Below, in pieces: positions 22,265-48,470 of a stretch of DNA of 64,000 bases (its first letter is position 1; the number at the start of each line of letters is the position of its first letter). This stretch comes from Alitta virens (taxonomy: Eukaryota > Annelida > Polychaeta > Phyllodocida > Nereididae): the NCBI GenBank assembly GCA_932294295.1, contig OW028576.1, positions 49,618,199 to 49,682,198 on the forward strand, given 5' to 3'. The notes beneath the pieces were generated by a model. It saw only the letters and a list, made by a program, of their open reading frames with translations. It made no database searches and was not told where the DNA came from. A program made the position numbers and the translations under genes.

Positions 22265-25200
22265 TGGCATTACTTCATTTTTGCATACAAGCTAATTAAC
22301 TTGAGAAAATTACATCTACAGCCTACCGACAATCAACCAACCAACCTTCCTACCAAAACTAGTTCCAAGGACCCCAGAAACAATCATCATGCATTAGAAC
22401 TAAGTTTCATTGATTCATTTTTGCATATAAGCCCATTTACTAGAGAAAAATCTTATTTACTTGGCCTGGCCAAGAAAGTTGGTTTCAGCTGACAGCCAAC
22501 CGAATGCCAACCAAGCAACCAACCTACCGACCAAAATGAGTTCTAAGGACCCCAGAAACAATAATCAGGCATAAGAACTAAGTTTCATTGCTTCAATTTT
22601 GCATACAAGCCTATTTACTGTAGAAAAATTCCATTTACATTGCCGAAAGTTGGTTTTCAGCCGACAGCCAACCAACCAACCAAAACTAATTCTAAGGACC
22701 CCAGAAACAATTTTCAAGCCTTATAACTAAGCTTCATTGCTTAATTTTTGCATACAAGCCATTTACCTGAGAAAATTGCATTTACTTTGCCGAAAGTTGG
22801 TTTTCAGCCGACAGCCAACCAACCAACCAACCTACCACAACTAATTCTAAGGACTCCAGAAACAATCATTAGGCATTAGAACTAAGTTTCATATGCTTAA
22901 TTTTTGCAACCAACCAACCTTTCTACCAAAACTATTTCTAATAAACCCAGAAACAATCATCAGGCATTAGAACTAAATTTCATTGCTTCATTTTTGCATA
23001 CCAGCTCATTTACTTGAGAAAAATCTTACTTACTTGGCCCGGCCAAGAAAGTTGGTTTTCGGCCGACACCCAACTGACCAACCAACCTACTAAAACTAAT
23101 TCTAAGGACCCCAGAAACAATTTACAAGCATAAGAACTAAATTTCATTACTGCATTTTTGCATACAAGCCAATTTACTTGAGAAAATTACATTTACAGCC
23201 AACTTACATCCAGCCAACCAAGCTTCCAACCAAAACTAGTTCCAATGACCCGAGAAACAATAATCATGCATTAGAACTAAGTTTCATTGATTCATTTTTG
23301 CATATAAGCCCATTTACTAGAGAAAAATCTTATTTACTTGGCCCACTTACTTGAGAAAAATTCGATTTACTTTGCCGAAAGTTGGTTTTCAGCCCACGGC
23401 CAAATGACCAACCAACGTACTAAAACTAATTCTAAAGACCCCAGAAACAATCATTAGGCATTAGAACTAAGTTTCATTGCTTCATTTTTGCATACAAGCC
23501 CATTTACTTGAGAAAAATTGTATTTGGTTGATAGCCAATCTACCAACCAACCTACTAAAACTAATTCTAAGGACCCCAGAAACAATTTTCAAGGATTATA
23601 ACTAAATTTCATTACTTAATTTTTGCATACAAGCCAATTTACTTGAGAAAATTACATTTACAGCCAACCGACAGCCAACCAACCAACCTTCCTACCAAAA
23701 TTAGTTCTAAGGACCCCAGAAACAATCATCATGCATTAGAACTAAGTTTCATTGATTAATTTTTACATATAAGCCCATTTACTGGAGAAAAATCGTATTT
23801 ACTTGGCCCGACCAAGAAAGTTAGTTTCAGCTGACAGCCAACCGACAGCCAACCAACGAACCTACCGACCTAATTCTAAGGACCAAAAAAAACAATTAAC
23901 AAGCGTATGCTTCATTTTTGCTTACAAGCCCATTTACTTGTGAAAATTATATTTACTTGGCCGAAAGTTGGTTTTCGGCCGACAGCCAACCGACTGCCAA
24001 CCAACCACCTTTCTACCGAAACTAGTTCTAAGTAACCCAGAATCAATAATCAGGCATTAGAACTAAGTTTCATTGCTTCATTTTTGACAATAAGGCCATT
24101 TACTTGAGAAAAATCGTATTTACTTGGCTCAGCCAAGAAAGTTGGTTTCGGATGACAGCCAACCGACAGCCAACCAGCCAACCTACTGACCAAAGCAGGT
24201 TCTAAGGACCCCAGAAACAATAACCAGGCATTAGAACTAAGTCTCATTGCTTCGTTTTTGCATACAAGCCCATTTACTTGAGAAAAATTTTATTTTACTA
24301 AGCCGAAAGTTGGTTTTCAGCCGACAGCCAACCGACCAACCAACCTGCCAAAGCTAATTCTATGGACCCCAGAAACCATTTACAAGCATTAGAACTAAGT
24401 TTCATTGCTTCATTTTTGCATACAAGCCCATTTACTTGAGAAAATTGTATTTACTTGGCCCGGCCAAGAAAGTTAGTTCTCGGGCGACTGCCAACCAATC
24501 AACCTACCTACCAAAACTAGTTCTGAGGACCCCAGAAACAATCATTAGGCATTAGAACTAAGTCTCATTGATTCATTTTTGCATACAAGCCCACTTTCTT
24601 GAAAAAAATCGTATTTACTTGGTCCGGCCAAGAAAGTTGGTTTTCGGCTGACACCCAACCTACCAACCAACCTACTAAAACTAATTCTAAGGACCCCAGA
24701 AACAATTTACAGGCATTAGAACTAAGTTTCATTACTTCATTTTCGCATACAAGCCAATTCACTTGAGAAAATTACATTTACAGCATCCAACCAACCAACC
24801 TTCCTACCAAAACTAGTTCCAAGAACCCCAGAAACAATCATCATGCATTAGAACTAAGTTTCATTTGCTTCATTTTTGCATATAAGCCCATTTACTAGAG
24901 AAAAAACCTATTTACTTGGCCCGGCGAAGAAAGTGGGTTTCAGCTGACAGCCAACCGAATGCCAACCAAGCAACCAACCTACCGACCAAAACGAGTTCTA
25001 AGGACCCCAAAAACAATAATCAGGCATAAGAACTAGGTTTCATTGCTTCATTTTTGCATACAAGCCCATTTACTTGAGAAAAATCCCATTTGCTTTGTCG
25101 AATGTTGGTATTCAGAAGACAGCCAACTGACCAACCATTCTACCAAAGCTGGTTCTAAGGACCCCAGAAACAATAATCAGGCATTAAAACTAAGTCTCAT

Positions 25201-28200
25201 TGCTTAATTTTTGGTTACAAGCCCATTTACTTCTGAAAATTACATTTACTTGGCCGAAAGTTGGTTTTTGACCGACAGCCAACCGACAGCCAACCAACCA
25301 ACCAACCTACCGACAAAAACTAGTTCTCAGGACCCCAGAAATAATAATCAGGCATTAGAAATAAGTCTCATTGGTTCGTTTTTGCATACAAGCCCACTTA
25401 CTTGAGAAAGATTCTATTTACCTTGCCAAAAGCTGGTTTTCAGCGGACAGCCAAATGACCAACCAACGTACTAAAACTAATTCTAAAGACCCCAGAAACA
25501 ATCATTAGGCATTAGAACTAAGTTTCATTGCTTCATTTTTGCATACAAGCCCATTTACTTGAGAAAAAGCGTATTTACTTGGCCCGGTAAAGAAAGTTGG
25601 TTTTCAGCCGATAGCCAACCGACAGCCAACCAACCAACCTACCGACCAAAACGAGTTCTAAGGACCTCAGAAACAATAATCAGGCATAAGAACTAAGTAT
25701 CATTGCTTCATTTTTGCATACAAGCCCATTTCCTTGAGAAAAATCCCATTTGCTTCGTCGAAAGTTGGTTTTCAGAAGCGGCCAACTGACCAACCATTCT
25801 ACAAAAACTGGTTCTAAGGACCCCAGAAACAATTTTCAAGCATTATAACTAAGCTTCATTGCTTCATTTTTGCATACAAGCCATTTACCTGAGAAAATTC
25901 CATTTACTTTGCCAAAAGTTGGTTTTCAGCCGACAGCCAACCAATCAACCAACCTACCACAACTAATTCTAAGGACCCAAGAAATAATCTATAGGCATTA
26001 GAACTAAGTTTCATATGCTTAATTTTTGCATATAAGCCCATTTACTTGAGAAAATTCCATTTACTTGGCCGAAAGTTGGTTTTCAGCCGACAGCCAACCG
26101 ACTGCCAACCAACCAACCTTTGTACCAAAACTAGTTCTAAGAAACCCAGAAACAATCATCAGGCATTAGAACTAAATTTCATTGCTTCATGTTTGCATAC
26201 AAGCCCATTTACTTGAGAAAAATCGTACTTACTTGGCCCGGTTAAGAAAGTTGGTTTTCGGCCGACACCCAACTGACCAACCAACCTACTAAAACTAATT
26301 CTAAGGACCCCAGAAACAATTAACAAGCATTAGAACTAAGTTTCATTACTTCATTATCGCATACAAGCCAATTCACTTGAGAAAATTACATTTACAGCAT
26401 CCAACCAACAAACCTTCCTACCAAAACTAGTTCCAAGAACCCTAGAAACAATCATCATTCATTAGAACTAAGTTTCATTCATTCATTTTTGCATATAAGC
26501 CCATTTACTAGAGAAAAAACCTATTTACTTGGCCCGGCGAAGAAAGTTAGTTTCAGCTGACAGCCAACCGACAGCCAACCAACGAACCTACCGACCTAAT
26601 TCTAAGGACCAAAAAAAACAATTAACAAGCATATGCTTCATTTTTGCTTACAAGCCCATTTACTTGTGAAAATTATATTTACTTGGCCGAAAGTTGGTTT
26701 TCGGCCGACAGCCAACTGACTGCCAACCAACCACCTTTCTACCGAAACTAGTTCTAAGTAACCAAGAATCAATAATCAGGCATTAGAACTAAGTTTTATT
26801 TGCTTCATTTTTGCCTATAAGGCCATTTACTTGAGAAAAATCGTATTTACTTGGCTCAGCCAAGAAAGTTGGTTTCGGATGACAGCCAACCGACAGCCAA
26901 CCAGCCAACCTACTGACCAAAACAGGTTCTAAGGACCCCAGAAACAATAACCAGGCATTAGAACTAAGGCCCATTGCTTCATTTTTGCATACAAGCCCAT
27001 TTACTTGAGAAAAATTTTATTTTACTAAGCCGAAAGTTGGTTTTCAGCCGACAGCCAACCGACCAACCAACCTGCCAAAGCTAATTCTATGGACTCCAGA
27101 AACCATTTGCAAGCATTAGAACTAAGTTTCATTGATTCATTTTTGCATACAAGCCCACTTTCTTGAAAAAGATCGTATTTACTTGGCCCGGCCAAGAAAG
27201 TTGGTTTTCGGCCGACACCCAACCTACCAACCAACCTACTAAAACTAATTCTAAGGACCCCAGAAACAATTTACAGGCATTAGAACTAAGTTTCATTACT
27301 TCATTTTCGCATACAAGCCAATTCACTTGAGAAAATTACATTTACAGCATCCAACCAACCAACCTTCCTACCAAAACTAGTTCCAAGGACCCCAGAAAGA
27401 ATCATCATGCACTAGAACTAAGTTTCATTCATTCATTTTTGCATATAAGCCCATTTACTAGAGAAAAAACCTATTTACTTGGCCCGGCGAAGAAAGTGGG
27501 TTTCAGCTGACAGCCAACCGAATGCCAACCAAGCAACCAACCTACCGACCAAAACGAGTTCTAAGGACCCCAAAAACAATAATCAGGCATAAGAACTAGG
27601 TTTCATTGCTTCATTTTTGCATACAAGCCCATTTACTTGAGAAAAATCCCATTTGCTTTGTCGAATGTTGGTATTCAGAAGACAGCCAACTGACCAACCA
27701 TTCTACCAAAACTGGTTCTAAGAACCCCAGAAACAATAATCAGGCATTAGAACTAAGTCTCATTGCTTAATTTTTGGTTACAAGCCCATTTACTTTTGAA
27801 AATTACATTTACTTGGCCGAAAGTTGGTTTTTGACCGACAGCCAACCGACAGCCAACCAACCAACCAACCTACCGACAAAAACTAGTTCTCAGGACCCCA
27901 GAAATAATAATCAGGCATTAGAAATAAGTCTCATTGGTTCGTTTTTGCATACAAGCCCACTTACTTGAGAAAGATTCTATTTACCTTGCCAAAAGCTGGT
28001 TTTCAGCGGACAGCCAAATGACCAACCAACGTACTAAAACTAATTCTAAAGACCCCAGAAACAATCATTATGCATTAGAACTAAGTTTCATTGCTTCATT
28101 TTTGCATACAAGCCCATTTACTTGAGAAAAAGCGTATTTACTTGGCCCGGTAAAGAAAGTTGGTTTTCAGCCGATAGCCAACCGACAGCCAACCAACCAA

Positions 28201-31200
28201 CCTACCGACCAAAACGAGTTCTAAGGACCTCAGAAACAATAATCAGGCATAAGAACTAAGTATCATTGCTTCATTTTTGCATACAAGCCCATTTCCTTGA
28301 GAAAAATCCCATTTGCTTCTTCGAAAGTTGGTTTTCAGAAGCGGCTAACTGACCAACCATTTTACAAAAACTGGTTCGAAGGACCCCAGAAACAATTTTC
28401 AAGCATTATAACTAAGCTTCATTGCTTCATTTTTGCATACAAGCCATTTACCTGAGAAAATTCCATTTACTTTGCCAAAAGTTGGTTTTCATCCGACAGC
28501 CAACCAATCAACCAACCTACCACAACTAATTCTAAGGACCCAAGAAATAATCTATAGGCATTAGAACTAAGTTTCATATGCTTAATTTTTGCATACAAGC
28601 CCATTTACTTGAGAAAATTCCATTTACTTGGCCGAAAGTTGGTTTTCAGCCGACAGCCAACCGACTGCCAACCAACCAACCTTTGTACCAAAACTAGTTC
28701 TAAGAAACCCAGAAACAATCATCAGGCATTAGAACTAAATTTCATTGCTTCATTTTTGCATACAAGCCCATTTACTTGAGAAAAATCGTACTTACTTGGC
28801 CCGGTTAAGAAAGTTGGTTTTCGGCCGACACCCAACTGACCAACCAACCTACTAAAACTAATTCTAAGGACCCCAGAAACAATTAACAAGCATTAGAACT
28901 AAGTTTCATTACTTCATTATCGCATACAAGCCAATTCACTTGAGAAAATTACATTTACAGCATCCAACCAACAAACCTTCCTACCAAAACTGGTTCCAAG
29001 AACCCTAGAAACAATCATCATTCATTAGAACTAAGTTTCATTCATTCATTTTTGCATATAAGCCCATTTACTAGAGAAAAAACCTATTTACTTGGCCCGG
29101 CGAAGAAAGTTAGTTTCAGCTGACAGCCAACCGACAGCCAACCAACGAACCTACCGACCTAATTCTAAGGACCAAAAAAAACAATTAACAAGCATATGCT
29201 TCATTTTTGCTTACAAGCCCATTTACTTGTGAAAATTATATTTACTTGGCCGAAAGTTGGTTTTCGGCCGACAGCCAACTGACTGCCAACCAGCCACCTT
29301 TCTACCGAAACTAGTTCTAAGTAACCAAGAATCAATAATCAGGCATTAGAACTAAGTTTTATTTGCTTCATTTTTGCCTATAAGGCCATTTACTTGAGAA
29401 AAATCGTATTTACTTGGCTCAGCCAAGAAAGTTGGTTTCGGATGACAGCCAACCGACAGCCAACCAGCCAACCTACTGACCAAAACAGGTTCTAAGGACC
29501 CCAGAAACAATAACCAGGCATTAGAACTAAGGCCCATTGCTTCGTTTTTGCATACAAGCCCATTTACTTGAGAAAAATTTTATTTTACTAAGCCGAAAGT
29601 TGGTTTTCAGCCGACAGCCAACCGACCAACCAACCTGCCAAAGCTAATTCTATGGACTCCAGAAACCATTTGCAAGCATTAGAACTAAGTTTCATTGATT
29701 CATTTTTGCATACAAGCCCACTTTCTTGAAAAAGATCGTATTTACTTGGCCCGGCCAAGAAAGTTGGTTTTCGGCCAACACCCAACCTACCAACCAACCT
29801 ACTAAAACTAATTCTAAGGACCCCAGAAACAATTTACAGGCATTAGAACTAAGTTTCATTACTTCATTTTCGCATACAAGCCAATTCACTTGAGAAAATT
29901 ACATTTACAGCATCCAACCAACCAACCTTCCTACCAAAACTAGTTCCAAGGACCCCAGAAACAATCATCATGCACTAGAACTAAGTTTCATTCATTCATT
30001 TTTGCATATAAGCCCATTTACTAGAGAAAAAACCTATTTACTTGGCCCGGCGAAGAAAGTGGGTTTCAGCTGACAGCCAACCGAATGCCAACCAAGCAAC
30101 CAACCTACCGACCAAAACGAGTTCTAAGGACCCCAAAAACAATAATCAGGCATAAGAACTAGGTTTCATTGCTTCATTTTTGCATACAAGCCCATTTACT
30201 TGAGAAAAATCCCATTTGCTTTGTCGAATGTTGGTATTCAGAAGACAGCCAACTGACCAACCATTCTACCAAAACTGGTTCTAAGGACCCCAGAAACAAT
30301 AATCAGGCATTAGAACTAAGTCTCATTGCTTAATTTTTGGTTACAAGCCCATTTACTTCTGAAAATTACATTTACTTGGCCGAAAGTTGGTTTTTGACCG
30401 ACAGCCAACCGACAGCCAACCAACCAACCAACCTACCGACAAAAACTAGTTCTCAGGACCCCAGAAATAATAATCAGGCATTAGAAATAAGTCTCATTGG
30501 TTCGTTTTTGCATACAAGCCCACTTACTTGAGAAAGATTCTATTTACCTTGCCAAAAGCTGGTTTTCAGCGGACAGCCAAATGACCAACCAACGTACTAA
30601 AACTAATTCTAAAGACCCCAGAAACAATCATTAGGCATTAGAACTAAGTTTCATTGCTTCATTTTTGCATACAAGCCCATTTACTTGAGAAAAAGCGTAT
30701 TTACTTGGCCCGGTAAAGAAAGTTGGTTTTCAGCCGATAGCCAACCGACAGCCAACCAACCAACCTACCGACCAAAAAGAGTTCTAAGGACCTCAGAAAC
30801 AATAATCAGGCATAAGAACTAAGTATCATTGCTTCATTTTTGCATACAAGCCCATTTCCTTGAGAAAAATCCCATTTGCTTCTTCGAAAGTTGGTTTTCA
30901 GAAGCGGCTAACTGACCAACCATTTTACAAAAACTGGTTCGAAGGACCCCAGAAACAATTTTCAAGCATTATAACTAAGCTTCATTGCTTCATTTTTGCA
31001 TACAAGCCATTTACCTGAGAAAATTCCATTTACTTTGCCAAAAGTTGGTTTTCATCCGACAGCCAACCAATCAACCAACCTACCACAACTAATTCTAAGG
31101 ACCCAAGAAATAATCTATAGGCATTAGAACTAAGTTTCATATGCTTAATTTTTGCATACAAGCCCATTTACTTGAGAAAATTCCATTTACTTGGCCGAAA

Positions 31201-34113
31201 GTTGGTTTTCAGCCGACAGCCAACCGACTGCCAACCAACCAACCTTTGTACCAAAGCTAGTTCTAAGAAACCCAGAAACAATCATCAGGCATTAGAACTA
31301 AATTTCATTGCTTCATTTTTGCATACAAGCCCATTTACTTGAGAAAAATCGTACTTACTTGGCCCGGTTAAGAAAGTTGGTTTTCGGCCGACACCCAACT
31401 GACCAACCAACCTACTAAAACTAATTCTAAGGACCCCAGAAACAATTAACAAGCATTAGAACTAAGTTTCATTACTTCATTATCGCATACAAGCCAATTC
31501 ACTTGAGAAAATTACATTTACAGCATCCAACCAACAAACCTTCCTACCAAAACTAGTTCCAAGAACCCTAGAAACAATCATCATTCATTAGAACTAAGTT
31601 TCATTCATTCATTTTTGCATATAAGCCCATTTACTAGAGAAAAAACCTATTTACTTGGCCCGGCGAAGAAAGTTAGTTTCAGCTGACAGCCAACCGACAG
31701 CCAACCAACGAACCTACCGACCTAATTCTAAGGACCAAAAAAAACAATTAACAAGCATATGCTTCATTTTTGCTTACAAGCCCATTTACTTGTGAAAATT
31801 ATATTTACTTGGCCGAAAGTTGGTTTTCGGCCGACAGCCAACTGACTGCCAACCAGCCACCTTTCTACCGAAACTAGTTCTAAGTAACCAAGAATCAATA
31901 ATCAGGCATTAGAACTAAGTTTTATTTGCTTCATTTTTGCCTATAAGGCCATTTACTTGAGAAAAATCGTATTTACTTGGCTCAGCCAAGAAAGTTGGTT
32001 TCGGATGACAGCCAACCGACAGCCAACCAGCCAACCTACTGACCAAAACAGGTTCTAAGGACCCCAGAAACAATAACCAGGCATTAGAACTAAGGCCCAT
32101 TGCTTCGTTTTTGCATACAAGCCCATTTACTTGAGAAAAATTTTATTTTACTAAGCCGAAAGTTGGTTTTCAGCCGACAGCCAACCGACCAACCAACCTG
32201 CCAAAGCTAATTCTATGGACTCCAGAAACCATTTGCAAGCATTAGAACTAAGTTTCATTGATTCATTTTTGCATACAAGCCCACTTTCTTGAAAAAGATC
32301 GTATTTACTTGGCCCGGCCAAGAAAGTTGGTTTTCGGCCAACACCCAACCTACCAACCAACCTACTAAAACTAATTCTAAGGACCCCAGAAACAATTTAC
32401 AGGCATTAGAACTAAGTTTCATTACTTCATTTTCGCATACAAGCCAATTCACTTGAGAAAATTACATTTACAGCATCCAACCAACCAACCTTCCTACCAA
32501 AACTAGTTCCAAGGACCCCAGAAACAATCATCATGCACTAGAACTAAGTTTCATTCATTCATTTTTGCATATAAGCCCATTTACTAGAGAAAAAACCTAT
32601 TTACTTGGCCCGGCGAAGAAAGTGGGTTTCAGCTGACAGCCAACCGAATGCCAACCAAGCAACCAACCTACCGACCAAAACGAGTTCTAAGGACCCCAAA
32701 AACAATAATCAGGCATAAGAACTAGGTTTCATTGCTTCATTTTTGCATACAAGCCCATTTACTTGAGAAAAATCCCATTTGCTTTGTCGAATGTTGGTAT
32801 TCAGAAGACAGCCAACTGACCAACCATTCTACCAAAACTGGTTCTAAGGACCCCAGAAACAATAATCAGGCATTAGAACTAAGTCTCATTGCTTAATTTT
32901 TGGTTACAAGCCCATTTACTTCTGAAAATTACATTTACTTGGCCGAAAGTTGGTTTTTGACCGACAGCCAACCGACAGCCAACCAACCAACCAACCTACC
33001 GACAAAAACTAGTTCTCAGGACCCCAGAAATAATAATCAGGCATTAGAAATAAGTCTCATTGGTTCGTTTTTGCATACAAGCCCACTTACTTGAGAAAGA
33101 TTCTATTTACCTTGCCAAAAGCTGGTTTTCAGCGGACAGCCAAATGACCAACCAACGTACTAAAACTAATTCTAAAGACCCCAGAAACAATCATTAGGCA
33201 TTAGAACTAAGTTTCATTGCTTCATTTTTGCATACAAGCCCATTTACTTGAGAAAAAGCGTATTTACTTGGCCCGGTAAAGAAAGTTGGTTTTCAGCCGA
33301 TAGCCAACCGACAGCCAACCAACCAACCTACCGACCAAAACGAGTTCTAAGGACCTCAGAAACAATAATCAGGCATAAGAACTAAGTATCATTGCTTCAT
33401 TTTTGCATACAAGCCCATTTCCTTGAGAAAAATCCCATTTGCTTCTTCGAAAGTTGGTTTTCAGAAGCGGCTAACTGACCAACCATTTTACAAAAACTGG
33501 TTCTAAGGACCCCAGAAACAATTTTCAAGCATTATAACTAAGCTTCATTGCTTCATTTTTGCATACAAGCCATTTACCTGAGAAAATTCCATTTACTTTG
33601 CCAAAAGTTGGTTTTCAGCCGACCGCCAACCAATCAACCAACCTACCACAACTAATTCTAAGGACCCCAGAAATAATTTACAGGCATAAGAACTAAGTTT
33701 CATTACTTCATTTTCGCATACAAGCCAATTAACTTGAGAAAATTACATTTACAGCATCCAACCAACCAACCTTCCTACCAAAACTAGTTCCAAGGACCCC
33801 AGAAACAGTAGTCAGGCATTAGAACTAAGTCTTATTGCTTCGTTTTTGCATAAAAGCCCATTTACTTGAGAAAAATTGTATTTACTTGGCCCGGCCAAAA
33901 AAGTTGGTTTTCGGCTGACAGCCAACTAACCAACCAACCAACCTATCAAACTATTCTAAGGACCCCAGAAATAATCATTAGGCATTAGAACTAAGTTTCA
34001 TTGCTTTATGTTTGCATACAAGCCCATTATCTTGAGAAAAATCGTATTTAACATTTACTTCAGTAAAACTAGTTCTAAGAAACCCAGAAACAATCATCAG
34101 GCATTAGAACTAA
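22265..34113. repeat. satellite A, ~160-bp monomers
   Basis: About 11.8 kb of tandem, diverged monomers. Each contains in order: GACCCCAGAAACAAT, GCATTAGAACTAAGTTTCAT, TTTTTGCATACAAGCCCATT, ACTTGAGAAAA, a palindromic CTTGGCC/C/GGCCAAG, AAGTTGGTTTTC, GGCCGACAGCCAACC and a (CCAA)n run. Monomer length varies (about 130-180 bp), partly through the CCAA run. The many short ORFs inside recur with the repeat and have no protein-like features, so they are not genes. The GC palindrome may form a small hairpin per monomer. Confidence 0.97.
23820..33650. repeat. 2563-bp higher-order repeat of satellite A
   Basis: Marker segments recur at exact steps of 2563 bp (for example 26789, 29352, 31915; 27025, 29588, 32151; 25211, 27774, 30337, 32900), which defines a higher-order unit of about 16 monomers by hand count. 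Nearly four units are present. The first is about 175 bp longer because of one extra monomer near 24370-24560, and the last is incomplete. Units 2 to 4 are nearly identical, while monomers within a unit differ strongly. This is the pattern of recent unit-level amplification. Confidence 0.93.
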
Positions 34114-34186
34114 GTTAGGGTTAGGGTTAGCGTTAGTTAGGGTTGGGGTTAGGGTCAGGGTTAGTGTTAGGGTTCAGGGTTTAATG
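34112..34186 (+). repeat. interstitial TTAGGG-type repeat, first block
   Basis: Directly joined to the last satellite A word (GAACTAAG), this reads TTAGGGTTAGGGTTAGCG, then GTTAGTTAGGGTTGGGGTTA, then GGGTCAGGGTTAG. It is a degenerate run of the TTAGGG telomere unit found in most animals outside arthropods and nematodes. Confidence 0.85.
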
Positions 34187-34569
34187 CCAATAAATTGGTT
34201 TTAATCCTGAATTTATTCCCAACCTAAATACCTGACAAATGCATTGGCACAAGTACTTAAGATATGACCACTTGGTGGGTTTGTGTCAGAAAACAATATA
34301 AGTAAATTTGGGGAGGTTTATGTAGAAAGAAGATCTGGATCTTCTGGATTGGGGTCTTTTTACATAGCTCTAACTAAGTGCTGTGATAGATTCTTGTTTC
34401 TAGCATTTGCTTTTATAATGGTGAGTGAGTGTTTTTTTAACCTTGATGAGTTTGATTTAAAATCCTCTAACCAGTCCCTTGCAATTTTAACTAGTCGTTG
34501 AGAAGTGTGATTGTGTTGCAATATGAATGTGCACACATCCCCAGAAACAATCATCAGGCATTAGAACTA

Positions 34570-34613
34570 AGTTAGGGTTAGGGTCAGGGTTAGTTAGGGT
34601 TAGGGTTAGGGTT
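34570..34613 (+). repeat. interstitial TTAGGG-type repeat, second block
   Basis: Again preceded by a piece of satellite A (34540-34571) and followed by TCACACTCTATT. The unit order is the same as in the first block. Single GGGGTTAGGG motifs also recur near 34940 and 35046. Confidence 0.85.
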
Positions 34614-34841
34614 ATCACACTCTATTAGTTTGTTAGCTTTTTTTATGCATTTGTTACGATGATTTGGGTTAGATTTCAAACCCAGTCATCATGATGATGT
34701 TAGGATGAATGTTAGAATCATGAGGTGCTAACAGATGCCCACAGACGCTGACCTTATCATCAATAGTGTGCACACTGTCCCAACAGAGTCTTCAAAAACT
34801 TTTGCATAGTCTATGTTTGGACTTAGAAATTTTGTCTGTCA

Positions 34842-35158
34842 GGGTTACTCTCCCCACAACTTAATCACCTAAGGAGTTTTGATGTATTTGCTTGTACTTC
34901 AGCCTATGGAATTCCCCTTTTTGATGTTAATGTTCTGGTTGGGGTTAGGGTTACTCTCCCCACAACTTAATCACCTAATAGTTTTGATGTATTTGTTTCA
35001 ACTTCAGACTATGGAATTCCCCTTTTTGATGTTAATGTTGTGATTGGGGTTAGGGTTACTCTCCCCACAACTTAATCACCTAAGAGTTTTGATGTACTTG
35101 TTTCAACTTCAGCCAATGGAATTCCCCTTTTTGATGTTAATGTGATGGTTGGGGTTTT
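34842..35158. repeat. three tandem ~106-bp repeats with GGGTTA start
   Basis: GGGTTACTCTCCCCACAACT begins at 34842, 34948 and 35053. Each copy continues through GAGTTTTGATGTA and TGGAATTCCCCTTTTTGATG to GGTTGGGGTTAGGG, so telomere-like words sit at each copy's border. Confidence 0.9.
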
Positions 35159-35189
35159 TTGGAAAACCCCCTTTACTGAAGTAAATGTT

Positions 35190-36490
35190 AGCACACTCTG
35201 AAACTCACGGGTAGATCGGTAGGAATTGCCTATGTCCAAAAGATGAGACTGTTGCATTGAACAGGGTAATTAAACTTTGATAACTTAATGCATTTTTAAT
35301 ATGACAATTTCATCCTGTACTAACAATGTGCTAACAAAATAATCAACAGATTCATCATTTCTTAACAAATGCTTACATTTGGACTTTGACATTAATTCCA
35401 ATCAGATCCCCCTCTTGGAGGGCTTGTTAGCACATTCTATTATTCAAGGGTGAGTTGCCTTTTCATTCTGCCTAAAAGATTAGACTGTTGCATTGAACAG
35501 GGCAATTAGAACTTTGATAATTTTATGCAGTTTTACTATGACAATTTCATCCTGTCCCAATGTGCTAACAAATAATCAACAGATTCATCATTTCTTAACA
35601 AATGGTTACAAAACTTATACATTTTTGCAAAGTCTATGTTTGGACTCAGGGTCACTGTGAAGGGGGCAGGGTGAATAGAGTCCCATTTTCATCATCAGGG
35701 TTCAATTGACAATCAACACTATTACTTAACGATGATGCAATTGTCAACCCTAAACAACTCAAACAAACTCTTCAAAGCTAAAAATTGGGGCCAAAAATTT
35801 ATGTGGAGGGTTGTATTTATGATTTATTACACATCCTCATCTTTTAGCAATAAACTTAGATAAACCTTACACCTTTCACACTCTATCTGGTTATGTGGTG
35901 AGAAATCGGTAGGAATTTCCTTGTCCAAAAAATGAGACTGTTGCATTGAAAAGGGCAATTAGAGCTTTGATAATTTATGCATTTTTGGTGGAAGGGTTAC
36001 TTTGTTGATGTCTCATCTTTGTATTAGTTGCGATTGGTCACTGTGAAGGGGGCAGGGTTAATAGAGTCCCATTTTCATCATCAGGGTTCAATTGACAATC
36101 CATACTATTACTTAATGATGCAATTATCAACCATAGGATGCCTTGGTCAAGTGGTTAAGGTGTTCGCCTGCTATCCCCAAGGTTGTGGATTCGAACCCCC
36201 ACCATGGCATCGAGGAGTTGGGCAGATCCTCATCAACCATTGGCCATTGCCTCTCCCCACCTGGGTGTAATGGGTACTTGGCATTAGGCACCGACAGTCA
36301 TTGTACTGGTGTGAGCTCTTAAGCCCCTGTGGTTAACCCCGTGTTCAAGGCTTAATACTCCCAAGGGAGTTGAGAAAGAGTCCCATTTTCATATTTAAGG
36401 TTCAATTGACAATCCACACTATTACTTAACGATGTAATTGTCAACTCTAAACAACCCAAACAAACTCTTCAAAGCTAACAATTGGGGCCC
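35190..36490. repeat. interspersed direct repeats (two families)
   Basis: One family contains GAGACTGTTGCATTGAACAG and ATTCATCATTTCTTAACAAA, at about 35193-35385, 35431-35610 and 35877-35990. The other contains GAGTCCCATTTTCATCATCA and AACTCTTCAAAGCTAA, at about 35650-35795, 36037-36133 and 36376-36490. Copies are diverged and shuffled. There is no coding content. Confidence 0.8.
36134..36375 (+). mobile_element. tRNA-derived SINE (Ser/Leu-like head)
   Basis: GGATGCCTTGGTCAAGTGGT starts a tRNA-like 75 nt with A box TGGTCAAGTGG, B box GATTCGAACCC and a closing GGCATC that pairs with GATGCC. It resembles a Ser/Leu tRNA D-arm but has a degenerate anticodon arm. A body of about 165 bp follows (CTCCCCACCTGGGTGTAATG, GTGAGCTCTTAAGCCCC). 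It is flanked by two copies of a local direct repeat. Confidence 0.72.
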
Positions 36491-39400
36491 GGAACTTGAC
36501 AACCAGCTGAGGATGGAGTGGTAAAGATGCTGTCTTCCTTGCTGCCACTGCCTTCTTGGTGCGGTATCGCATGTAGCATTCAAAGCATCCCATCATCATC
36601 TTAGCCATCATCACTGCCAACAACGTCCCGATGAAAAGCCTCGACACATACAAAAGTATAACCTTCATCTTCTTCTTTCAGCCTATAGAAGTGAAGCACC
36701 TGCAGCATTTAAAAAAAAGTTGGAAGTTAAGGTAAAATTTTTGATTATAAGTTTAAAGTTACATTTAAGGTTAGTGTTTAGGTCAAGGATAAGGTTTAGT
36801 GATGGTTAGATTTCCAAAGTTTCATGGCGTAATGATTACTTGAACCTTTTTTGTTCAAATCAAAGTATATTTTAAGTTATAAATGAACAAAATTTCAGTA
36901 TTGACAGAATTGTTAACATTAAATTTGACCTTGACATGTAGCTCATATGTCAAAATTGACAGCAAATTCTGAAAGCTCATAGTAATTGTTTTTCCCAGGA
37001 AGGGAATACCTGCTATGCAATTTCTCCATTTGCCAACACTCCCAGGAAGGGAATACTTGCCATTCAGTTTCTCAAGCTATCAACACTCCCAGGAAGGGAA
37101 TGCTTGCCATGCAATTTTCAATTTGACAACACTCCCAGGAAGGGAATGCTTGTCGTGTCATTCTCATTTTACCAACACTTTTCGGACGAAATGCTTGCCA
37201 AGTAGTTTCTCAATGTGTCATCATTTTTTCCCCGACATTTTCTGAGACTATTTATGTTCCTTATGACGGCCTCCAGCCACCCCCAACAGCCATACCTTCT
37301 CCTCCATGTCCCATAATTGCCTGTTTCTCAGTTTTTCAATCTATCAACACTCCGGGGAAGGGAATGCTTGCCATGCGATTCTCAATTTGACAACACTCCC
37401 AGGAAGGGAATGTTTGTCATGTCATTCTCATTTTACCAACACTCCCAGGAAGGAAATGCTTCCAGAAGGAAATGCTTGCCAAGCTGATCCTCAATGTCCA
37501 AGAACAGGAATTACTCCCAGCGCACGTTAAAATGCTGACACTCAAAACGAGGAGCGCCTGCTGTGCACTTTCTTGACTCGCTGACACATGAAGGAAGCAC
37601 ATTCTTCACAAGCAGTTTCTCAATCTGTCAACACTCCCAGGAAGGGAATACCTGCTATGCAATTTCTCCATTTGCCAACACTCCCAGGAAGGGAATGCTT
37701 GCCATTCAGTTTCTCAAGCTATCAACACTCCCAGGAAGGGAATCCTTGCCATGCGATTTTCAATTTGACAACACTCCCAGGTAGGGAATGTTTGTTGTGT
37801 CATTCTCATTTTACCAACACTTTCAGAAGGAAATGCTTGCCAAGCAGTTTCTCAATGTGTCATCATTTTTTCCCAACATTTTCTGAGACTATTTATGTTC
37901 CTTATGACAGCCTCCAGCCACCTCCAACAGCCGTACCTTCTCCTCCATGTCCCATAATTGCCTGTTTCTCAGATTCTCAATCGATCAACACTCCCAGGAA
38001 GGGAATGTTTGTCACGTCAATCTCATTTTACCAACACTCCCGGGTAGGAAATGCTTCCAGAAGGAAATGCCTGCCAAGCAGATCCTCAATGTCCAAGAAC
38101 AGGAATTACTCCCAGCACACGTTAAAATGCTGACACTCAAAACGAGGAGCGCCTGCTGTACACTTTCTTGACTTGCCGACACATCAAGGAAGCACATTCT
38201 TGACAAGCAGTTTCTCAATCTGTCAACACTCCCAGGAAGGGAATACCTGCTATGCAATTTCTTCATTTGCCAAAACTCCCAGGAAGGGAATGCTTGCCAT
38301 TCAGTTTCTCAAGCTATCAACACTCCCAGGAAGGGAATACTTGCCATGCAATTTTCAATTTGACAACACTCCCAGGAAGGGAATGCTTGTCGTGTCATTC
38401 TCATTTTACCAACACTTTCAGAAGGAAATGCTTGCCAGGCAGTTTCTCAATGTGTCATCATTTTTCCCCAACATTTTCTGAGACTATTTATGTTCCTTAT
38501 GATGGCCTCCAGCCACCCGCAACAGCCGTACCTTCTCCGCCATGTCCCATAATTGCCTGTTTCTCAGTTTCTCAATCTATCAACACTCCCAGGAAGGGAA
38601 TTCTTGCCATGCGATTCTCAATTTGACAACACACCCAGGAAGAAAATGCTTCCAGAAAGAAATGCTTCCCAAGCAGATCCTCAATGTCCAAGAACAGGAA
38701 TTACTCCCAGCACACGTTAAAATGCTGACACTCAAAACGAGGAGCGCCTGCTGTACACTTTCTTGACTCGCCGACACATCAAGTAAGCACATTCTTGACA
38801 AGCAGTTTCTCAATCTGTCAACACTCCCAGGACGGGAATACCTGCTATGCAATTTCTCCATTTCCCAACACTCCCAGGAAGGGAATGCTTGCCATTCAGT
38901 TTCTCAAGCTATCAACACTCCCAGGAAGGGAATGCTTGCTATGCGATTTTCAATTTGACAACACTCCCAGGAAGGGAATGCTTGTCGTGTCATTCTCATT
39001 TTACCAACACTTTCAGAAGGAAATGCTTGCCAAGCAGTTTCTCAATGTGTCATCATTTTTTCCCCGACATTTTCTGAGACTATTTATGTTCCTTATGACA
39101 GCCTCCAGCCACCCCCAACAGCCGTACCTTCTCCTCCATGTCCCATAATTGCCTGTTTCTCAGTTTCTCAATCTATCAACACTCCCAGGAAGGGAATTCT
39201 TGCCATGCGATTCTCAATTTGACAACACTCCCAGGAAGGGAATGTTTGTCATGTCATTCTCATTTTACCAACACTCCCAAGAAGGAAATGCTTCCAGAAG
39301 GAAAAGCTTGCCTAGCAGATTCTCAATGTCCAATAACAGGAATTACTCCCAGCACACGTTAAAATGCTGACACTCAAAATGAGGAGCGCCTGCTGTACAC

Positions 39401-42400
39401 TTTCTTGACTCGCCGACACATCAAGTAAGCACATTCTTGACAAGCAGTTTCTCAATCTGTCAACACTCCCAGGAAGGGAATACCTGCTATGCAATTTCTC
39501 CATTTGCCAACACTCCCAGGAAGGGAATGCTTGCCATTCAGTTTCTTAAGCTATCAACACTCCCAGGAAGGGAATGCTTGCTATGCGATTTTCAATTTGA
39601 CAACACTCCCAGGAAGGGAATGCTTGTCGTGTCATTCTCATTTTACCAACACTTTCAGAAGGAAATGCTTGCCAAGCAGTTTCTCAATGTGTCATCATTT
39701 TTTCCCCGACATTTTCTGAGACTATTTATGTTCCTTATGACAGCCTCCAGCCACCCCCAACAGCCGTACCTTCTCCTCCATGTCCCATAATTGCCTGTTT
39801 CTCAGTTTCTCAATCTATCAACACTCCCAGGAAGGGAATTCTTGCCATGCGATTCTCAATATGACAACACTCCCAGGAAGGGAATGTTTGTCATGTCATT
39901 CTCATTTTACCAACACTCCCAAGAAGGAAATGCTTCCAGAAGGAAAAGCTTGCCTAGCAGATTCTCAATGTCCAATAACAGGAATTACTCCCAGCACACG
40001 TTAAAATGCTGACACTCAAAATGAGGAGCGCCTGCTGTGCACTGACTTGACTCGCCGACACATCAAGGAAGCACATTCTTGACAAGCAGTTTCTCAATCT
40101 GTCAACACTCCCAGGAAGGGAATACCTGCTATGCAATTTCTCCATTTGCCAACACTCCCAGGAAGGGAATGCTTGCCATTCAGTTTCTCAAGCTATCAAC
40201 ACTCCCAGGAAGGGAATGCTTGCCATGCGATTTTCAATTTGACAACACTCCCAGGAAGGGAATGTTTGTCGTGTCATTCTCATTTTACCAACACTTTCAG
40301 AAGGAAATGCTTGCCAAGCAGTTTCTCAATGTGTCATCATTTTTTACCGACATTTTCTGAGACTATTTATGTTCCTTACGACGGCCTCCAGCCACCCCAA
40401 CAGCCGTACCTTCTCCTCCATGTCCCATAATTGCCTGTTTCTCAGTTTCTCAATCTATCAACACTCCCAGGAAGGGAATGCTTGCCATGCGATTCTCAAT
40501 TTGACATCAATCCTAGGAAGGGAATGTTTGTCATGTCATTCTCATTTTACCAACACTCCCAGGAAGAAAATGCTTCCAGAAAGAAATGCTTCCCAAGCAG
40601 ATCCTCAATGTCCAAGAACAGGAATTACTCCCAGCACACGTTAAAATGCTGACACTCAAAACGAGGAGCGCCTGCTGTACACTTTCTTGACTCGCCGACA
40701 CATCAAGGAAGCACATTCATTCTTGACAAGCAGTTTCTCAATCTGTCAACACTCCCAGGAAGGGAATACCTGCTATGCAATTTCTCCATTTGCCAACACT
40801 CCCAGGAAGGGAATGCGTGCCATACAGTTTCTCAAGCTATCAACACTCCCAGGAAGGGAATGCTTGCCATGCAATTTTCAATTTGACAACACTCCCAGGA
40901 AGGGAATGCTTGTCGTGTCATTCTCATTTTACCAACACCTTCAGAAGGAAATGCTTGCCAAGCAGTTTCTCAATGTGTCATCATTTTTTCCCAACATTTT
41001 CTGAGACTATTTATGTTCCTTATGACGGCCTCCAGCCACCCCCAACAGCCGTACCTTCTCCTCCATGTCCCATAATTGCCTGTTTCTCAGTTTCTCAATC
41101 TATCAACACTCCCAGGAAGGGAATGCTTGCCATGCGATTCTCAATTTGACAACACTCCCAGGAAGGGAATGTTTGTCATGTCATTCTCAATTTACCAACA
41201 CTCCCAAAAAGGAAATGCTTCCAGAAGGAAATGCTTTCCAAGCAGATCCTCAATGTCCAAGAACAGGAATTACTCCCAGCACACGTTAAAATGCTGACAC
41301 TCAAAACGAGGAGCGCCTGCTGTACACTTTCTTGACTCGCCGACACATCAAGTAAGCACATTCTTGACAAGCAGTTTCTCAATCTGTCAACACTCCCAGG
41401 AAGGGAATACCTGCTATGCAATTTCTCCATTTGCCAACACTCCCAGGAAGGGAATGCTTGCCATTCAGTTTCTCAAGCTATCAACACTCCCAGAAAGGGA
41501 ATGCTTGCTATGCGATTTTCAATTTGACAACACTCCCAGGAAGGGAATGCTTGTCGTGTCATTCTCATTTTACCAACACTTTCAGAAGGAAATGCTTGCC
41601 AAGCAGTTTCTCAATGTGTCATCATTTTTTACCGACATTTTCTGAGACTATTTATGTTCCTTACGACGGCCTCCAGCCACCCCAACAGCCGTACCTTCTC
41701 CTCCATGTCCCATAATTGCCTGTTTCTCAGTTTCTCAATCTATCAACACTTCCAGGAAGGGAATGCTTGCCATGCGATTCTCAATTTGACATCAATCCTA
41801 GGAAGGGAATGTTTGTCATGTCATTCTCATTTTACCAACACTCCCAGGAAGAAAATGCTTCCAGAAAGAAATGCTTCCCAAGCAGATCCTCAATGTCCAA
41901 GAACAGGAATTACTCCCAGCACACGTTAAAATGCTGACACTCAAAACGAGGAGCGCCTGCTGTACACTTTCTTGACTCGCCGACACATCAAGGAAGCACA
42001 TTCATTCTTGACAAGCAGTTTCTCAATCTGTCAACACTCCCAGGAAGGGAATACCTGCTATGCAATTTCTCCATTTGCTAACACTCCCAGGAAGGGAATG
42101 CTTGCCATACAGTTTCTCAAGCTATCAACACTCCCAGGAAGGGAATGCTTGCCATGCAATTTTCAATTTGACAACACTCCCAGGAAGGGAATGCTTGTCG
42201 TGTCATTCTCATTTTACCAACACTTTCAGAAGGAAATGCTTGCCAAGCAGTTTCTCAATGTGTCATCATTTTTTCCCAACATTTTCTGAGACTATTTATG
42301 TTCCTTATGACGGCCTCCAGCCACCCCCAACAGCCGTACCTTCTCCTCCATGTCCCATAATTGCCTGTTTCTCAGTTTCTCAATCTATCAACACTCCCAG

Positions 42401-44489
42401 GAAGGGAATGCTTGTCGTGTCATTCTCATTTTACCAACACTTTCAGAAGGAAATGCTTGCCAAGCAGTTTCTCAATGTGTCATCATTTTTTCCCAACATT
42501 TTCTGAGACTATTTATGTTCCTTATGACGGCCTCCAGCCACCCCCAACAGCCCTACCTTCTCCTCCATGTCCCATAATTGCCTGTTTCTCAGTTTCTCAA
42601 TCTATCAACACTCCCAGGAAGGGAATGCTTGCCATGCGATTCTCAATTTGACAACACTCCCAGGAAGGGAATGTTTGTCATGTCATTCTCAATTTACCAA
42701 CACTCCCAAAAAGGAAATGCTTCCAGAAGGAAAAGCTTGCCAAGCAGATCCTCAATGTCCAAGAACAGGAATTACTCCCAGCACACGTTAACATGCTGAC
42801 ACTCAAAACGAGGAGCGCCTGCTGTGCACTTTCTTGACTCGCCGACACATCAAGTAAGCACATTCTTGACAAGCAGTTTCTCAATCTGTCAACACTCCCA
42901 GGAAGGGAATACCTGCTATGCAATTTCTCCATTTGCCAACACTCCCAGGAAGGGAATGCTTGCCATTCAGTTTCTCAAGCTATCAACACTCCCAGGAAGG
43001 GAATGCTTGCCATGTAATTTTCAATTTGACAACACTCCCAGGAAGGGAATGCTTGTCGTGTCATTCTCATTTTACCAACACTTTCAGAAGGAAATGCTTG
43101 CCAAGCAGTTTCTCAATGTGTCATCATTTTTCCCCAACATTTTCTGAGACTATTTATGTTCCTTATGACGGCCTCCAGCCACCCCCAACAGCTGTACCTT
43201 CTCCTCCATGTCCCATAATTGCCTGTTTCTCAGTTTCTCAATCTATCAACACTCCCAGGAAGGGAATGCTTGCCATGCGATTCTCAATTTGACAACACTC
43301 CCAGGAAGGGAATGTTTGTCATGTCATTCTCATTTTATCAACACTCCCAGGAAGGAAATGCTTCCAGAAGGAAATGCTTGCCAAGCAGATCCTCAATGTC
43401 CAAGAACAGGAATTACTCTCAGCGCACGTTAAAATGCTGACACTCAAAACGAGGAGCGCCTGCTGTGCACTTTCTTGACTCGCCGACACATCAAGGAAGC
43501 ACATTCTTGACAAGCAGTTTCTCAATCTGTCAACACTCCCAGGAAGGGAATACCTGCTATGCAATTTCTCCATTTGCCAACACTCCCAGGAAGGGAATGC
43601 TTGCCATTCAGTTTCTCAAGCTATCAACACTCCCAGGAAGGGAATGCTTGCCATGCAATTTTCAATTTGACAAAACTCCCAGGAAGTGAATGTTTGTCAT
43701 GTCATTCTCATTTTACCAACACTTTCAGAAGGAAATGCTTGCCAAGCAGTTTCTCAATGTGTCATCATTTTTTCCCAACATTTTCTGAGACTATTTATGT
43801 TCCTTATGACGGCCTCCAGCCACCCCCAACAGCCGTACCTTCTCCTCCATGTCCCATAATTGCCTGTTTCTCAGTTTCTCAATCGATCAACACTCCCAGG
43901 AAGGGAATGCTTGCCATGCGATTCTCAATTTAAGAACACTCCCAGGAAGGGAATGTTTGTCATGTCATTCTCATTTTACCAACACTCCCAGGAAGGAAAT
44001 GCTTCCAGAAGGAAATGCTTGCCAAGCAGATCCTCAATGTCCAAGAACAGCAATTACTCTCAGCGCATGTTAAAATGCTGACACTCAAAACGAGGAGCGC
44101 CTGCTGTGCACTTTCTTGACTCGCCGACACATCAAGGAAGCACATTCTTGACAAGCAGTTTCTCAATCTGTCAACACTCCCAGGAAGGGAATACCTGCTA
44201 TGCAATTTCTCCATTTGCCAACACTCCCAGGAAGGGAATGCTTGCCATTCAGTTTCTCAAGCTATCAACACTCCCAGGAAGGGAATGCTTGCCATGCAAT
44301 TTTCAACTTGACAACACTCCCAGGAAGGGAATGCTTGTCGTGTCATTCTCATTTTACCAACACTTTCAGAAGGAAATGCTTGCCAAGCAGTTTCTCAATG
44401 TGTCATCATTTTTTCCCAACATTTTCTGAGACTATTTATGTTCCTTATGACGGCCTCCAGCCACCCCCAACAGCCGTACCTTTTTCTCC

Positions 44490-47400: not shown

Positions 47401-48470
47401 ACTCAAAACGAGGAGTGCCTGCTGTGCACTTTCTTGACTCGCCGACACATCAAGGAAGCACAGTCTTGACAAGCAGTTTCTCAATCTGTCAACACTCCCA
47501 GGAAGGGAATACCTGCTATGCAATTTCTCCATTTGCCAACACTCCCAGGAAGGGAATGCTTGCCATTCAGTTTCTCAAGCTATCAACACTCCTAGGAAGG
47601 GAATGCTTGCCATGCGATTCTCAATTTGACAACACTCCCAGGAAGGGAATGTTTGTCATGTCATTCTCATTTTACCAACACTCCCAGGAAGGAAATGCAT
47701 CCAGAAGGAAATGCTTGCCAAGCAGATCCTCAATGTCCAAGAATAGGAATTACTCCCAGCGCACGTTAAAATGCTGACACTCAAAACGAGGAGCGCCTGC
47801 TGTGCACTTTCTTGACTCGCCGACACATCAAGTAAGCACATTCTTGACAAGCAGTTTCTCAATCTGTCAACACTCCCAGGAAGGGAATACCTGCTATGCA
47901 ATTTCTCCATTTGCCAACACTCCCAGGAAGGGAATGCTTGCCATTCAGTTTCTCAAGCTATCAACACTCCTAGGAAGGGAATGCTTGCCATGCGATTCTC
48001 AATTTGACAACACTCCCAGGAAGGGAATGTTTGTCATGTCATTCTCATTTTACCAACACTCCCAGGAAGGAAATGCATCCAGAAGGAAATGCTTGCCAAG
48101 CAGATCCTCAATGTCCAAGAATAGGAATTACTCCCAGCGCACGTTAAAATGCTGACACTCAAAACGAGGAGCGCCTGCTGTGCACTTTCTTGACTCGCCG
48201 ACACATCAAGTAAGCACATTCTTGACAAGCAGTTTCTCAATCTGTCAACACTCCCAGGAAGGGAATACCTGCTATGCAATTTCTCCATTTGCCAACACTC
48301 CCAGGAAGGGAATGCTTGCCATTCAGTTTCTCAAGCTATCAACACTCCTAGGAAGGGAATGCTTGCCATGCGATTCTCAATTTGACAACACTCCCAGGAA
48401 GGGAATGTTTGTCATGTCATTCTCATTTTACCAACACTCCCAGGAAGGAAATGCATCCAGAAGGAAATGC
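44490..48470. repeat. 1990-bp super-duplication inside satellite B
   Basis: The segment with units starting at 44841 and 45528 repeats at 46831 and 47518, exactly 1990 bp later (687+662+641). It includes rare variants such as TCAAGGAATCACATTCTTGA and a double CTTGCCATGCAATTCTCAAT. Shared private variants show a block duplication of about three units. Confidence 0.8.

What the first reader, a model, noticed from the sequence alone, without database searches (positions are those of the whole stretch)
34083..34613. Satellite A runs straight into TTAGGG repeats, and that junction is duplicated
A 44-bp segment containing the satellite end (GGCATTAGAACTAAG) plus TTAGGGTTAGGGT occurs at 34083-34126 and again at 34540-34583. 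A single healed break would give one junction. Two copies imply duplication or gene-conversion after the telomeric motif was acquired. Both blocks read TTAGGG left to right. It could mark a former chromosome end, a telomerase-healed break, or a subtelomeric satellite.
Basis: partly seen in the sequence, partly recalled or inferred. Interest (0 to 1): 0.75.

Follow-up and report, generated by a model that had tools for sequence, protein, structure and literature searches.

The report
Telomere-seeking Penelope retrotransposon fossil near chromosome end
The doubled satellite/telomere-repeat junction is best read as the scar of a truncated Penelope-type jumping element whose tail carries its own telomere-like repeats, and whose intact relatives form long arrays at chromosome ends of this ragworm.

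Summary
In detail: 44 bp are identical at 34083-34126 and 34540-34583, and the match extends to 73 bp at 96%. The 357 bp between the blocks is not spacer. It is a 5'-truncated, antisense piece of an 8.2-kb Penelope-like element (PLE) encoding a telomerase-like reverse transcriptase with a GIY-YIG endonuclease. The element's own 3' end carries a degenerate CCCTAA block. A genome scan (up to 2 mismatches) found 51 such 3' ends; 44 lie near a chromosome end, all 44 with TTAGGG outward. The genome matches Alitta virens, a nereid annelid.

Best explanation: an older satellite A/TTAGGG boundary was hit by this PLE, which inserted 3'-end first at the telomeric repeats and left a target-site duplication of about 73 bp. 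That is the 'duplicated junction'. The block was then copied: the same pair exists on five chromosomes, TTAGGG outward each time. Two other sites show flank-plus-TTAGGG duplications around PLE pieces; two further insertions do not.

Telomere-associated PLEs are known, but those I could read about are described as EN-deficient. One with the nuclease fused to the RT, in an annelid, looks like a new variant.

The parts
22518..34113 (+). Satellite A array (about 150/330-bp units), ending at ...GGCATTAGAACTAAG
   Evidence: Tandem Repeats Finder rows within 22518-34042; satellite found widely in the genome, the six best matches near chromosome ends
34083..34155 (+). Left copy of the duplicated target: 32 bp of satellite A plus about 41 bp of TTAGGG-type repeats
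   Evidence: 73 bp aligned to 34540-34612 at 95.9%; present at all five loci
34115..34181 (+). Left telomeric block; its inner part is target, its outer part (from about 34136) matches the element-encoded degenerate block
   Evidence: TRF 34114-34181; TTGGGG / TCAGGG / TTCAGGG variants shared with PLE copies at unrelated sites
34136..34542 (-). 5'-truncated Penelope-like element: its last ~410 bp, antisense to the + strand; holds the C-terminal end of ORF2 with an in-frame stop
   Evidence: 96.3% identity to positions 3-410 of the 8226-bp unit from C10; translation of the minus strand
34540..34612 (+). Right copy of the duplicated target, beginning at the PLE truncation point with a 3-nt overlap (CCC)
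34572..34613 (+). Right telomeric block, followed by other DNA and not by element: shows that TTAGGG existed between satellite A and the next block before the insertion
   Evidence: alignments (on C7 and C11 this block is 12 bp shorter)
34614..36200 (+). Subtelomeric block; 34614-34900 was found only at the same five loci, an outer part (about 35673-35869) also at C10 right; includes 3 x 105-bp repeats 34841-35156 with GGTTAGGGTTACTC

Best explanation
The feature is a fossil insertion of a telomere-associated, endonuclease-bearing Penelope-like retrotransposon. Shown: the DNA between the two junctions is the 3' end of this element; the element's 3' end carries about 45 nt of degenerate (CCCTAA)n even where it sits in non-telomeric DNA; near-identical full-length copies form head-to-tail arrays at chromosome ends with the 3' end facing inward; the second junction copy starts at the element's 5' truncation. 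Inferred mechanism: satellite A first met a short TTAGGG tract, by telomerase addition at an end or break or by subtelomeric exchange. The PLE RNA paired its CCCUAA tail with the G-rich strand of that tract, the 3' end of the G strand primed reverse transcription outward, and synthesis stopped after ~410 nt. The staggered second cut 73 bp further in duplicated 32 bp of satellite plus the TTAGGG, and a 3-nt microhomology sealed the join. The finished block was later copied between chromosome ends, which gives five loci.
For: Identity of the insert. ORF2: GIY-YIG in 19 of 19 members of alignment A1 and RVT_1 in 10 of 19 (the L029 ORF2 itself hits GIY-YIG only). Residues D314, D410-D411, Y597, Y609, G611, R619 and E669 are invariant in A1; in the wider A2 (35 sequences) three of them are 90% or more. 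Their catalytic roles are recalled. Predicted fold (pLDDT 89.8) of P0001, 100% identical over 99% of ORF2: best PDB match is telomerase TERT 3du5 (E 1.8e-11, TM 0.34/0.42), and five of the next six hits are telomerase, the sixth a retron. Element-encoded telomeric block at unrelated flanks. Location: 44 of 51 three-prime ends (up to 2 mismatches) within 340 kb of a chromosome end, 44 of 44 with TTAGGG outward (counted from its list with lengths); ORF2 match rows of the same family: 40 of 49 within 400 kb of an end, 40 of 40 with 3' end inward. The right copy of the junction has TTAGGG but no element behind it, as a target-site duplication requires. The same arrangement, flank + TTAGGG, truncated PLE, then flank + TTAGGG again starting at the truncation, recurs on C8 (twice) and C7.
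Against: No empty site was found: the right flank exists only at the five loci that carry the insertion. A 73-bp target-site duplication is long; the EN-bearing Penelopes in PMC3846280 passages have 8-10 bp ones or none. Of six insertions seen on both sides, two show no flank duplication: C5:15.06 Mb in non-telomeric DNA, and C9:40.18 Mb, where the truncated element is followed directly by TTAGGG and the next PLE. On C8 the left flank copy differs from the others by a 10-bp gap. On C7 the duplicated flank brackets two PLE pieces in tandem, so one insertion event is an assumption. Arrays of near-identical units could have grown by unequal crossing-over; end-primed addition is inferred from orientation only. 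TTAGGG tracts without any PLE checked also occur inside chromosomes (list cut at 100 places).
Confidence: 0.7

Rival explanations
1. The junction was duplicated by recombination, replication slippage or gene conversion after a PLE piece had attached outward of the satellite A/TTAGGG boundary; the second copy is not a target-site duplication.
For: Subtelomeres exchange DNA: the block is on five chromosomes with SNP and indel differences, and three other ends join satellite A directly to a SINE remnant instead. The C5 and C9 insertions have no flank duplication.
Against: It does not explain why the second copy begins at the PLE truncation, nor why the same geometry recurs at C8 and C7 with other flanks.
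Confidence: 0.22
2. Plain former chromosome end: a break in satellite A was healed by telomerase, later fused or capped; the transposon is incidental. As an account of the FIRST junction this is compatible with the best explanation.
For: The right TTAGGG block predates the insert. At other ends non-telomeric DNA runs into TTAGGG before the PLE (C6 about 20 repeats, also C1, C10, C12, C7), as healing would give. All five loci have TTAGGG outward.
Against: Explains the first junction only, not the second. The block here is short and degenerate, and could also come from an earlier insertion or a subtelomeric exchange.
Confidence: 0.35
3. The 8.2-kb arrays are an ordinary subtelomeric satellite that grew by unequal crossing-over from a few PLE insertions; the PLE does not extend ends.
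For: Units within and between arrays are near identical, and full-length units are joined at the same junction in the two in-array joins read (L029, L051).
Against: The inner junctions differ between ends: different flanks and different numbers of TTAGGG. Truncated units capped by TTAGGG and a further PLE occur at C7 and C9. Both ORFs are open in the unit read, and between the two families ORF2 keeps amino acids while synonymous sites are saturated.
Confidence: 0.3
4. Assembly artefact.
For: The genome note reports uncertainly placed repeats on chromosome 4.
Against: The same pair is assembled on four other chromosomes.
Confidence: 0.02

Closest known systems
Athena / Terminon Penelope-like elements of bdelloid rotifers (EN-deficient)
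   Same: PLE reverse transcriptase, chromosome-end location, head-to-tail arrays, 5' truncation capped by telomeric repeats, and a 3' end carrying reverse-complement telomeric repeats; GDSL esterases among their accessory ORFs (PMC6431247 passages; PMC3846280 passages and section 3)
   Different: Those are described as EN-deficient, with GIY-YIG-like nucleases only as one of several accessory functions, a hammerhead ribozyme next to the 3' repeats, and up to 40 kb. Here GIY-YIG is fused to the RT, the unit is 8.2 kb, the host is an annelid with TTAGGG, and no hammerhead is among the Rfam matches
Canonical GIY-YIG Penelope elements (Penelope/Poseidon type, EN+)
   Same: RT plus C-terminal GIY-YIG, partial tandem copies, 5' truncation, microhomology joins (passages of PMC3846280 and PMC11167929)
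   Different: In the passages read, insertions have 8-10 bp target-site duplications or none, and no telomeric 3' end or terminal array is mentioned
HeT-A / TART / TAHRE of Drosophila and TRAS / SART of moths (recalled; PMC5537684 seen in a listing only)
   Same: Telomeric retrotransposons in one orientation at chromosome ends; TRAS/SART target telomeric repeats with an endonuclease
   Different: These are non-LTR elements with other nucleases; here a PLE, in a genome that also has a terminal CCCTAA array (at least the first 1.2 kb of C9)
Subtelomeric duplicons with interstitial TTAGGG, as in primates (recalled)
   Same: Blocks copied between ends, TTAGGG oriented outward
   Different: Here the duplicated junction brackets a retrotransposon insertion

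Membership tests
Penelope-like elements (PLE), endonuclease-bearing | Reverse transcriptase of the telomerase-related type | tested here: met
   RVT_1 in 10 of 19 members of A1; fold model of P0001 matches TERT best. RVT_1 was not reached by the L029 ORF2 itself; no RT tree was built
Penelope-like elements (PLE), endonuclease-bearing | GIY-YIG endonuclease fused C-terminal to the RT | tested here: met
   PF01541 at residues 595-677, E 2.1e-7, above cut-off; 19 of 19 members of A1
Penelope-like elements (PLE), endonuclease-bearing | Tandem or partial-tandem copies, 5' truncation | tested here: met
   8226-bp period; full plus truncated tandem on C7, truncated pieces on C8
Penelope-like elements (PLE), endonuclease-bearing | Short target-site duplication on insertion | tested here: inconclusive
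   Long flank duplications at three sites; none at C5:15.06 Mb or C9:40.18 Mb
Athena/Terminon telomere-associated PLE | Chromosome-end location with 3' end inward | tested here: met
   44 of 51 three-prime ends near ends, 44 of 44 oriented
Athena/Terminon telomere-associated PLE | Reverse-complement telomeric repeats at the 3' end of the element | tested here: met
   Degenerate block at unrelated and non-telomeric flanks
Athena/Terminon telomere-associated PLE | No endonuclease domain in the RT ORF | tested here: not met
   GIY-YIG present with conserved residues
Athena/Terminon telomere-associated PLE | Hammerhead ribozyme next to the 3' repeats | tested here: not met
   No Rfam match at E up to 0.1 over L029; in the 3' stretch at E up to 10 only three weak non-hammerhead matches below their cut-offs
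Interstitial telomeric sequence from telomerase healing | TTAGGG joined directly to unrelated DNA without a transposon | tested here: inconclusive
   The right copy qualifies, but it now lies in a duplication that brackets a PLE piece

The most novel reading that the evidence does not exclude
Alitta virens builds some of its chromosome ends jointly by telomerase and by an endonuclease-bearing Penelope-like element whose RNA tail base-pairs with TTAGGG overhangs. The same element uses its GIY-YIG nuclease at interstitial TTAGGG tracts and leaves unusually long target-site duplications, so telomere attachment in PLEs does not require loss of the nuclease. Its ORF1 also carries a NADAR domain and a weak GDSL-type match.
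Probability: 0.4. Interest if true: 0.78.

Novelty: new variant of a known kind. Interest (0 to 1): 0.62.

Why it matters
PLE reverse transcriptases are the retroelement kin of telomerase. An animal in which a PLE with a conserved nuclease, a telomeric RNA tail and open reading frames sits in arrays at chromosome ends beside ordinary TTAGGG telomeres would let one test how a mobile reverse transcriptase attaches to chromosome ends, and whether loss of the nuclease is needed for it. It also turns some short interstitial TTAGGG blocks from presumed fusion or healing scars into retrotransposon footprints.

Tried and rejected
Chance or artefact: rejected. Independent telomerase healing of two ends at the same satellite base: rejected, because both copies share the satellite breakpoint and the same irregular unit (TTAG between hexamers). 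Bare tandem duplication of junction plus spacer: rejected, because the right TTAGGG block is followed by other DNA, not by spacer. A randomly dispersed repeat: rejected by location. Empty site: sought and not found; outer ends of satellite A on C9 left and C10 (left and right) run into a SINE remnant and not into TTAGGG, and on C14 left the contig begins inside satellite A. Hammerhead ribozyme: a CTGACGA...GCGAAAC string in the unit looked like one by eye, but no hammerhead was among the Rfam matches and the minimum-energy fold did not show the core. Solved structures by sequence: none at E up to 0.1. Window scans: no Rfam match at gathering score, no tRNA. Literature for an annelid or EN-bearing telomeric PLE: no title or abstract start in the listings (20 of 36 shown; 20 of 33 shown) named one; a search for NADAR with retrotransposon (20 of 104 shown) gave nothing of use. 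The papers of 2007, 2017 and 2021 that I recalled as most relevant are not held, so absence from print is not established. Family 2 (ORF2 59-60% identical, C7 left and C1 right ends) shows no telomeric 3' block in the stretch read.

Full report
What was checked. It is there, exact, at 34083-34126 and 34540-34583. Allowing mismatches the two copies align over 73 bp at 95.9%. TTAGGG dimers are far above chance: 12 matches against 0.22 expected, none of 100 shuffles reaching 12.

Where it is. The window is C4:49618199-49682198 of a 671,116,069-bp genome of 23 contigs. The other contig lengths that I saw agree with its table to within about 15 kb; the paper counts 24 scaffolds and 671,169,925 bp. 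C23 carries the mitochondrial cox1. I take the host to be this nereid annelid. At least the first 1.2 kb of C9 is CCCTAA repeat, so TTAGGG is its telomeric repeat.

The pair is a family. The junction word occurs at ten places: two copies at each of five loci on C4, C5, C7, C11, C14. They lie about 814, 32, 157, 90 and 59 kb from a contig end (positions, lengths), all with TTAGGG pointing outward. Alignment of the five shows the same satellite breakpoint, the same insert and the same outer block near it, with differences that group C4/C7/C11 against C5/C14; on C7 and C11 the right TTAGGG block is 12 bp shorter. So the duplication came first and the copying between ends later.

What the insert is. 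Searching the genome with the 357 bp between the blocks gave 40 full-length matches and one partial one (a capped list, 40 of 63 candidates scored), many spaced by about 8.2-8.5 kb at chromosome ends. One unit was read from C10. It is 8226 bp long and has two long ORFs: 854 aa with a NADAR domain (E 8.3e-12) and a sub-threshold GDSL match (E 0.02), and 765 aa with a GIY-YIG domain. The second has 2148 relatives among 7990 candidates scored. In 19 aligned proteins (2 from this genome, 17 chosen from the 120 listed) GIY-YIG is found in 19 and RVT_1 in 10; motif residues of both are invariant there and invariant or nearly so in a set of 35. A fold prediction for P0001, which is 100% identical over 99% of ORF2, matches telomerase reverse transcriptase first (3du5, E 1.8e-11; TM-scores only 0.34/0.42, so a shared RT core and not a full superposition), with five of the next six hits also telomerase. 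I read this as a Penelope-like element with its endonuclease. Window 34136-34542 is 96.3% identical to unit positions 3-410, antisense, and its coding remnant has an in-frame stop.

The telomeric tail belongs to the element. I printed 25 places side by side; 24 showed the 3' end, L048 did not. In most, the 3' end is preceded by the same degenerate block read on the G strand: GGTTAGGG TTGGGG TTAGGG TCAGGG TTAGGG TTAGGG TTCAGGG TTTAAATGCC; a few (L041, L053, L006) lack the TTGGGG or have other changes (L058, the window family). It is present where the flank is not telomeric (C5:15.06 and 15.30 Mb and C7:3.5 Mb, which share one flank; C11:30.3 and 30.47 Mb, which share another). At several ends extra TTAGGG lies between the flank and this block: C6, C1 (14 kb), C10, C12, C5 left, C7 right and C9 right; but not at C1 (108 kb), C7 (63 kb) or C4:50.25 Mb.

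Where the family lives. A pattern scan of the 3' end (31 bases, up to 2 mismatches) found 51 copies: 44 within 340 kb of a chromosome end and 7 internal (C5 two, C8 three, C11 two); all 44 have TTAGGG outward (counted from its list). The backward control found none. The scan misses more diverged copies, such as the window's own family and C7:3.5 Mb, and stretches that read N. ORF2 match rows of this family: 49, of which 40 within 400 kb of an end and 40 of 40 with the 3' end inward; 9 internal rows (59 of 124 candidates were scored). A second family, 60% identical, has 12 rows, all near ends; 10 of 12 have that orientation and 2, on C1 right, the opposite. Copies in one array are not independent events. 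Between the two families' ORF2 the synonymous sites are saturated while dN is 0.36, which indicates long purifying selection.

Mechanism. A PLE whose RNA ends in CCCUAA repeats could anneal to a TTAGGG 3' end and be copied outward; this predicts 3' end inward and TTAGGG outward, as seen. If the TTAGGG lies inside a chromosome, the nuclease must make the end, and repair of the staggered second cut duplicates the target. In the window the second copy of satellite+TTAGGG starts where the element is truncated, with 3 nt shared (34540 against 34542), and the right copy has no element behind it. On C8:12.64-12.65 Mb a different flank (CAGAGTGGGCTATAGGG...GATGCTGGG + TTAGGG) is present three times around two PLE insertions, the left copy with a 10-bp gap; on C7:42.136-42.147 Mb a 48-bp flank + TTAGGG (82 columns at 93.9%) is repeated around a full-plus-partial PLE tandem. 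There the second copies overlap the truncation by 4 (C7) and up to 6 and 11 (C8) columns as BLAST draws the ends; no unexplained bases lie between. So 4 of 6 insertions seen on both sides, at 3 of 5 sites, show a flank duplication; C5:15.06 Mb does not, nor does C9:40.18 Mb, where the truncated element is capped by TTAGGG and a further PLE, as terminal addition would give. End-priming and nicking are inferred; no experiment was done.

Against. No empty site exists in this assembly. The duplication is long compared with the 8-10 bp, or none, reported for EN-bearing Penelopes of a rotifer (PMC3846280, passages). Array homogeneity could come from unequal exchange. Interior TTAGGG tracts occur elsewhere too and were not examined. 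The origin of the first satellite A/TTAGGG boundary is open; a healed end is plausible because other ends show other DNA running into TTAGGG, among them satellite B of this very window (95-96% identical) on C10 left.

Comparison with the known. PMC6431247 (passages) describes Terminons: PLEs at rotifer telomeres, EN-deficient, with reverse-complement telomeric repeats at the 3' end beside a hammerhead, and with accessory ORFs that can include GDSL esterases and GIY-YIG-like nucleases. PMC3846280 (section 3) says EN-deficient PLEs prime from exposed termini, and contrasts them with EN-bearing ones that make short duplications. PMC12477314 (passages) agrees on the Terminon 3' end. The present element would work like the former but carries the nuclease of the latter in its RT ORF, so it fails a defining feature of the Athena/Terminon class and meets those tested of EN-bearing PLEs, target-site length aside. 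That this combination is unreported rests only on the listings in an open-licence library; passages of PMC2678813, PMC12031113, PMC7943196 and PMC11167929 did not describe it.

Noticed in passing
window 36993-48851: Satellite B (47-bp and 378-bp periods). At C10 left end (L056) a 95-96% identical satellite B runs straight into about 13 TTAGGG-type repeats and then a PLE array: a second satellite/telomere junction in this genome.
   Followed up: partly
window ~36141-36200; L061, L063, L064: tRNA-like SINE start (box-B-like GGATTCGAACCCCC read by eye; ARAGORN found no tRNA). On C9 left and C10 (left and right) a piece of this SINE is joined directly to satellite A.
   Followed up: partly
L014 (C7:1-10000): Second PLE family, 7831-bp period, ORF2 59% identical, ORF1 with NADAR (E 1.7e-20) and a weak GDSL match; no telomeric block seen in its 3' region.
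   Followed up: partly
G000:C11:30.32-30.47 Mb: Three internal match rows of the telomeric PLE, one with an open ORF2 at 100% identity, two with the same flank; either an internal cluster or a placement problem.
   Followed up: partly
G000:C1:79.91-79.97 Mb: Family 2 copies in both orientations, with TTAGGG tracts on both strands near the right end: a possible inverted subtelomere.
   Followed up: no
P0001 (source jgi): Protein 100% identical to ORF2 over 99% of its length from a JGI-sourced contig of 7862 bases; possibly worm DNA in an environmental sample.
   Followed up: no
window 16490-17451: About 1 kb of ATGTTAAC-type short-period satellite with higher-order 62/156/172-bp periods.
   Followed up: no
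window 49397-50054: Two 328-bp copies at 99% identity, starting GACTTCACCCCAAGTG.
   Followed up: no
L029 ~1980-2020, + strand: CTGACGA...GCGAAAC string resembling a hammerhead core by eye; no support from Rfam or the minimum-energy fold.
   Followed up: yes
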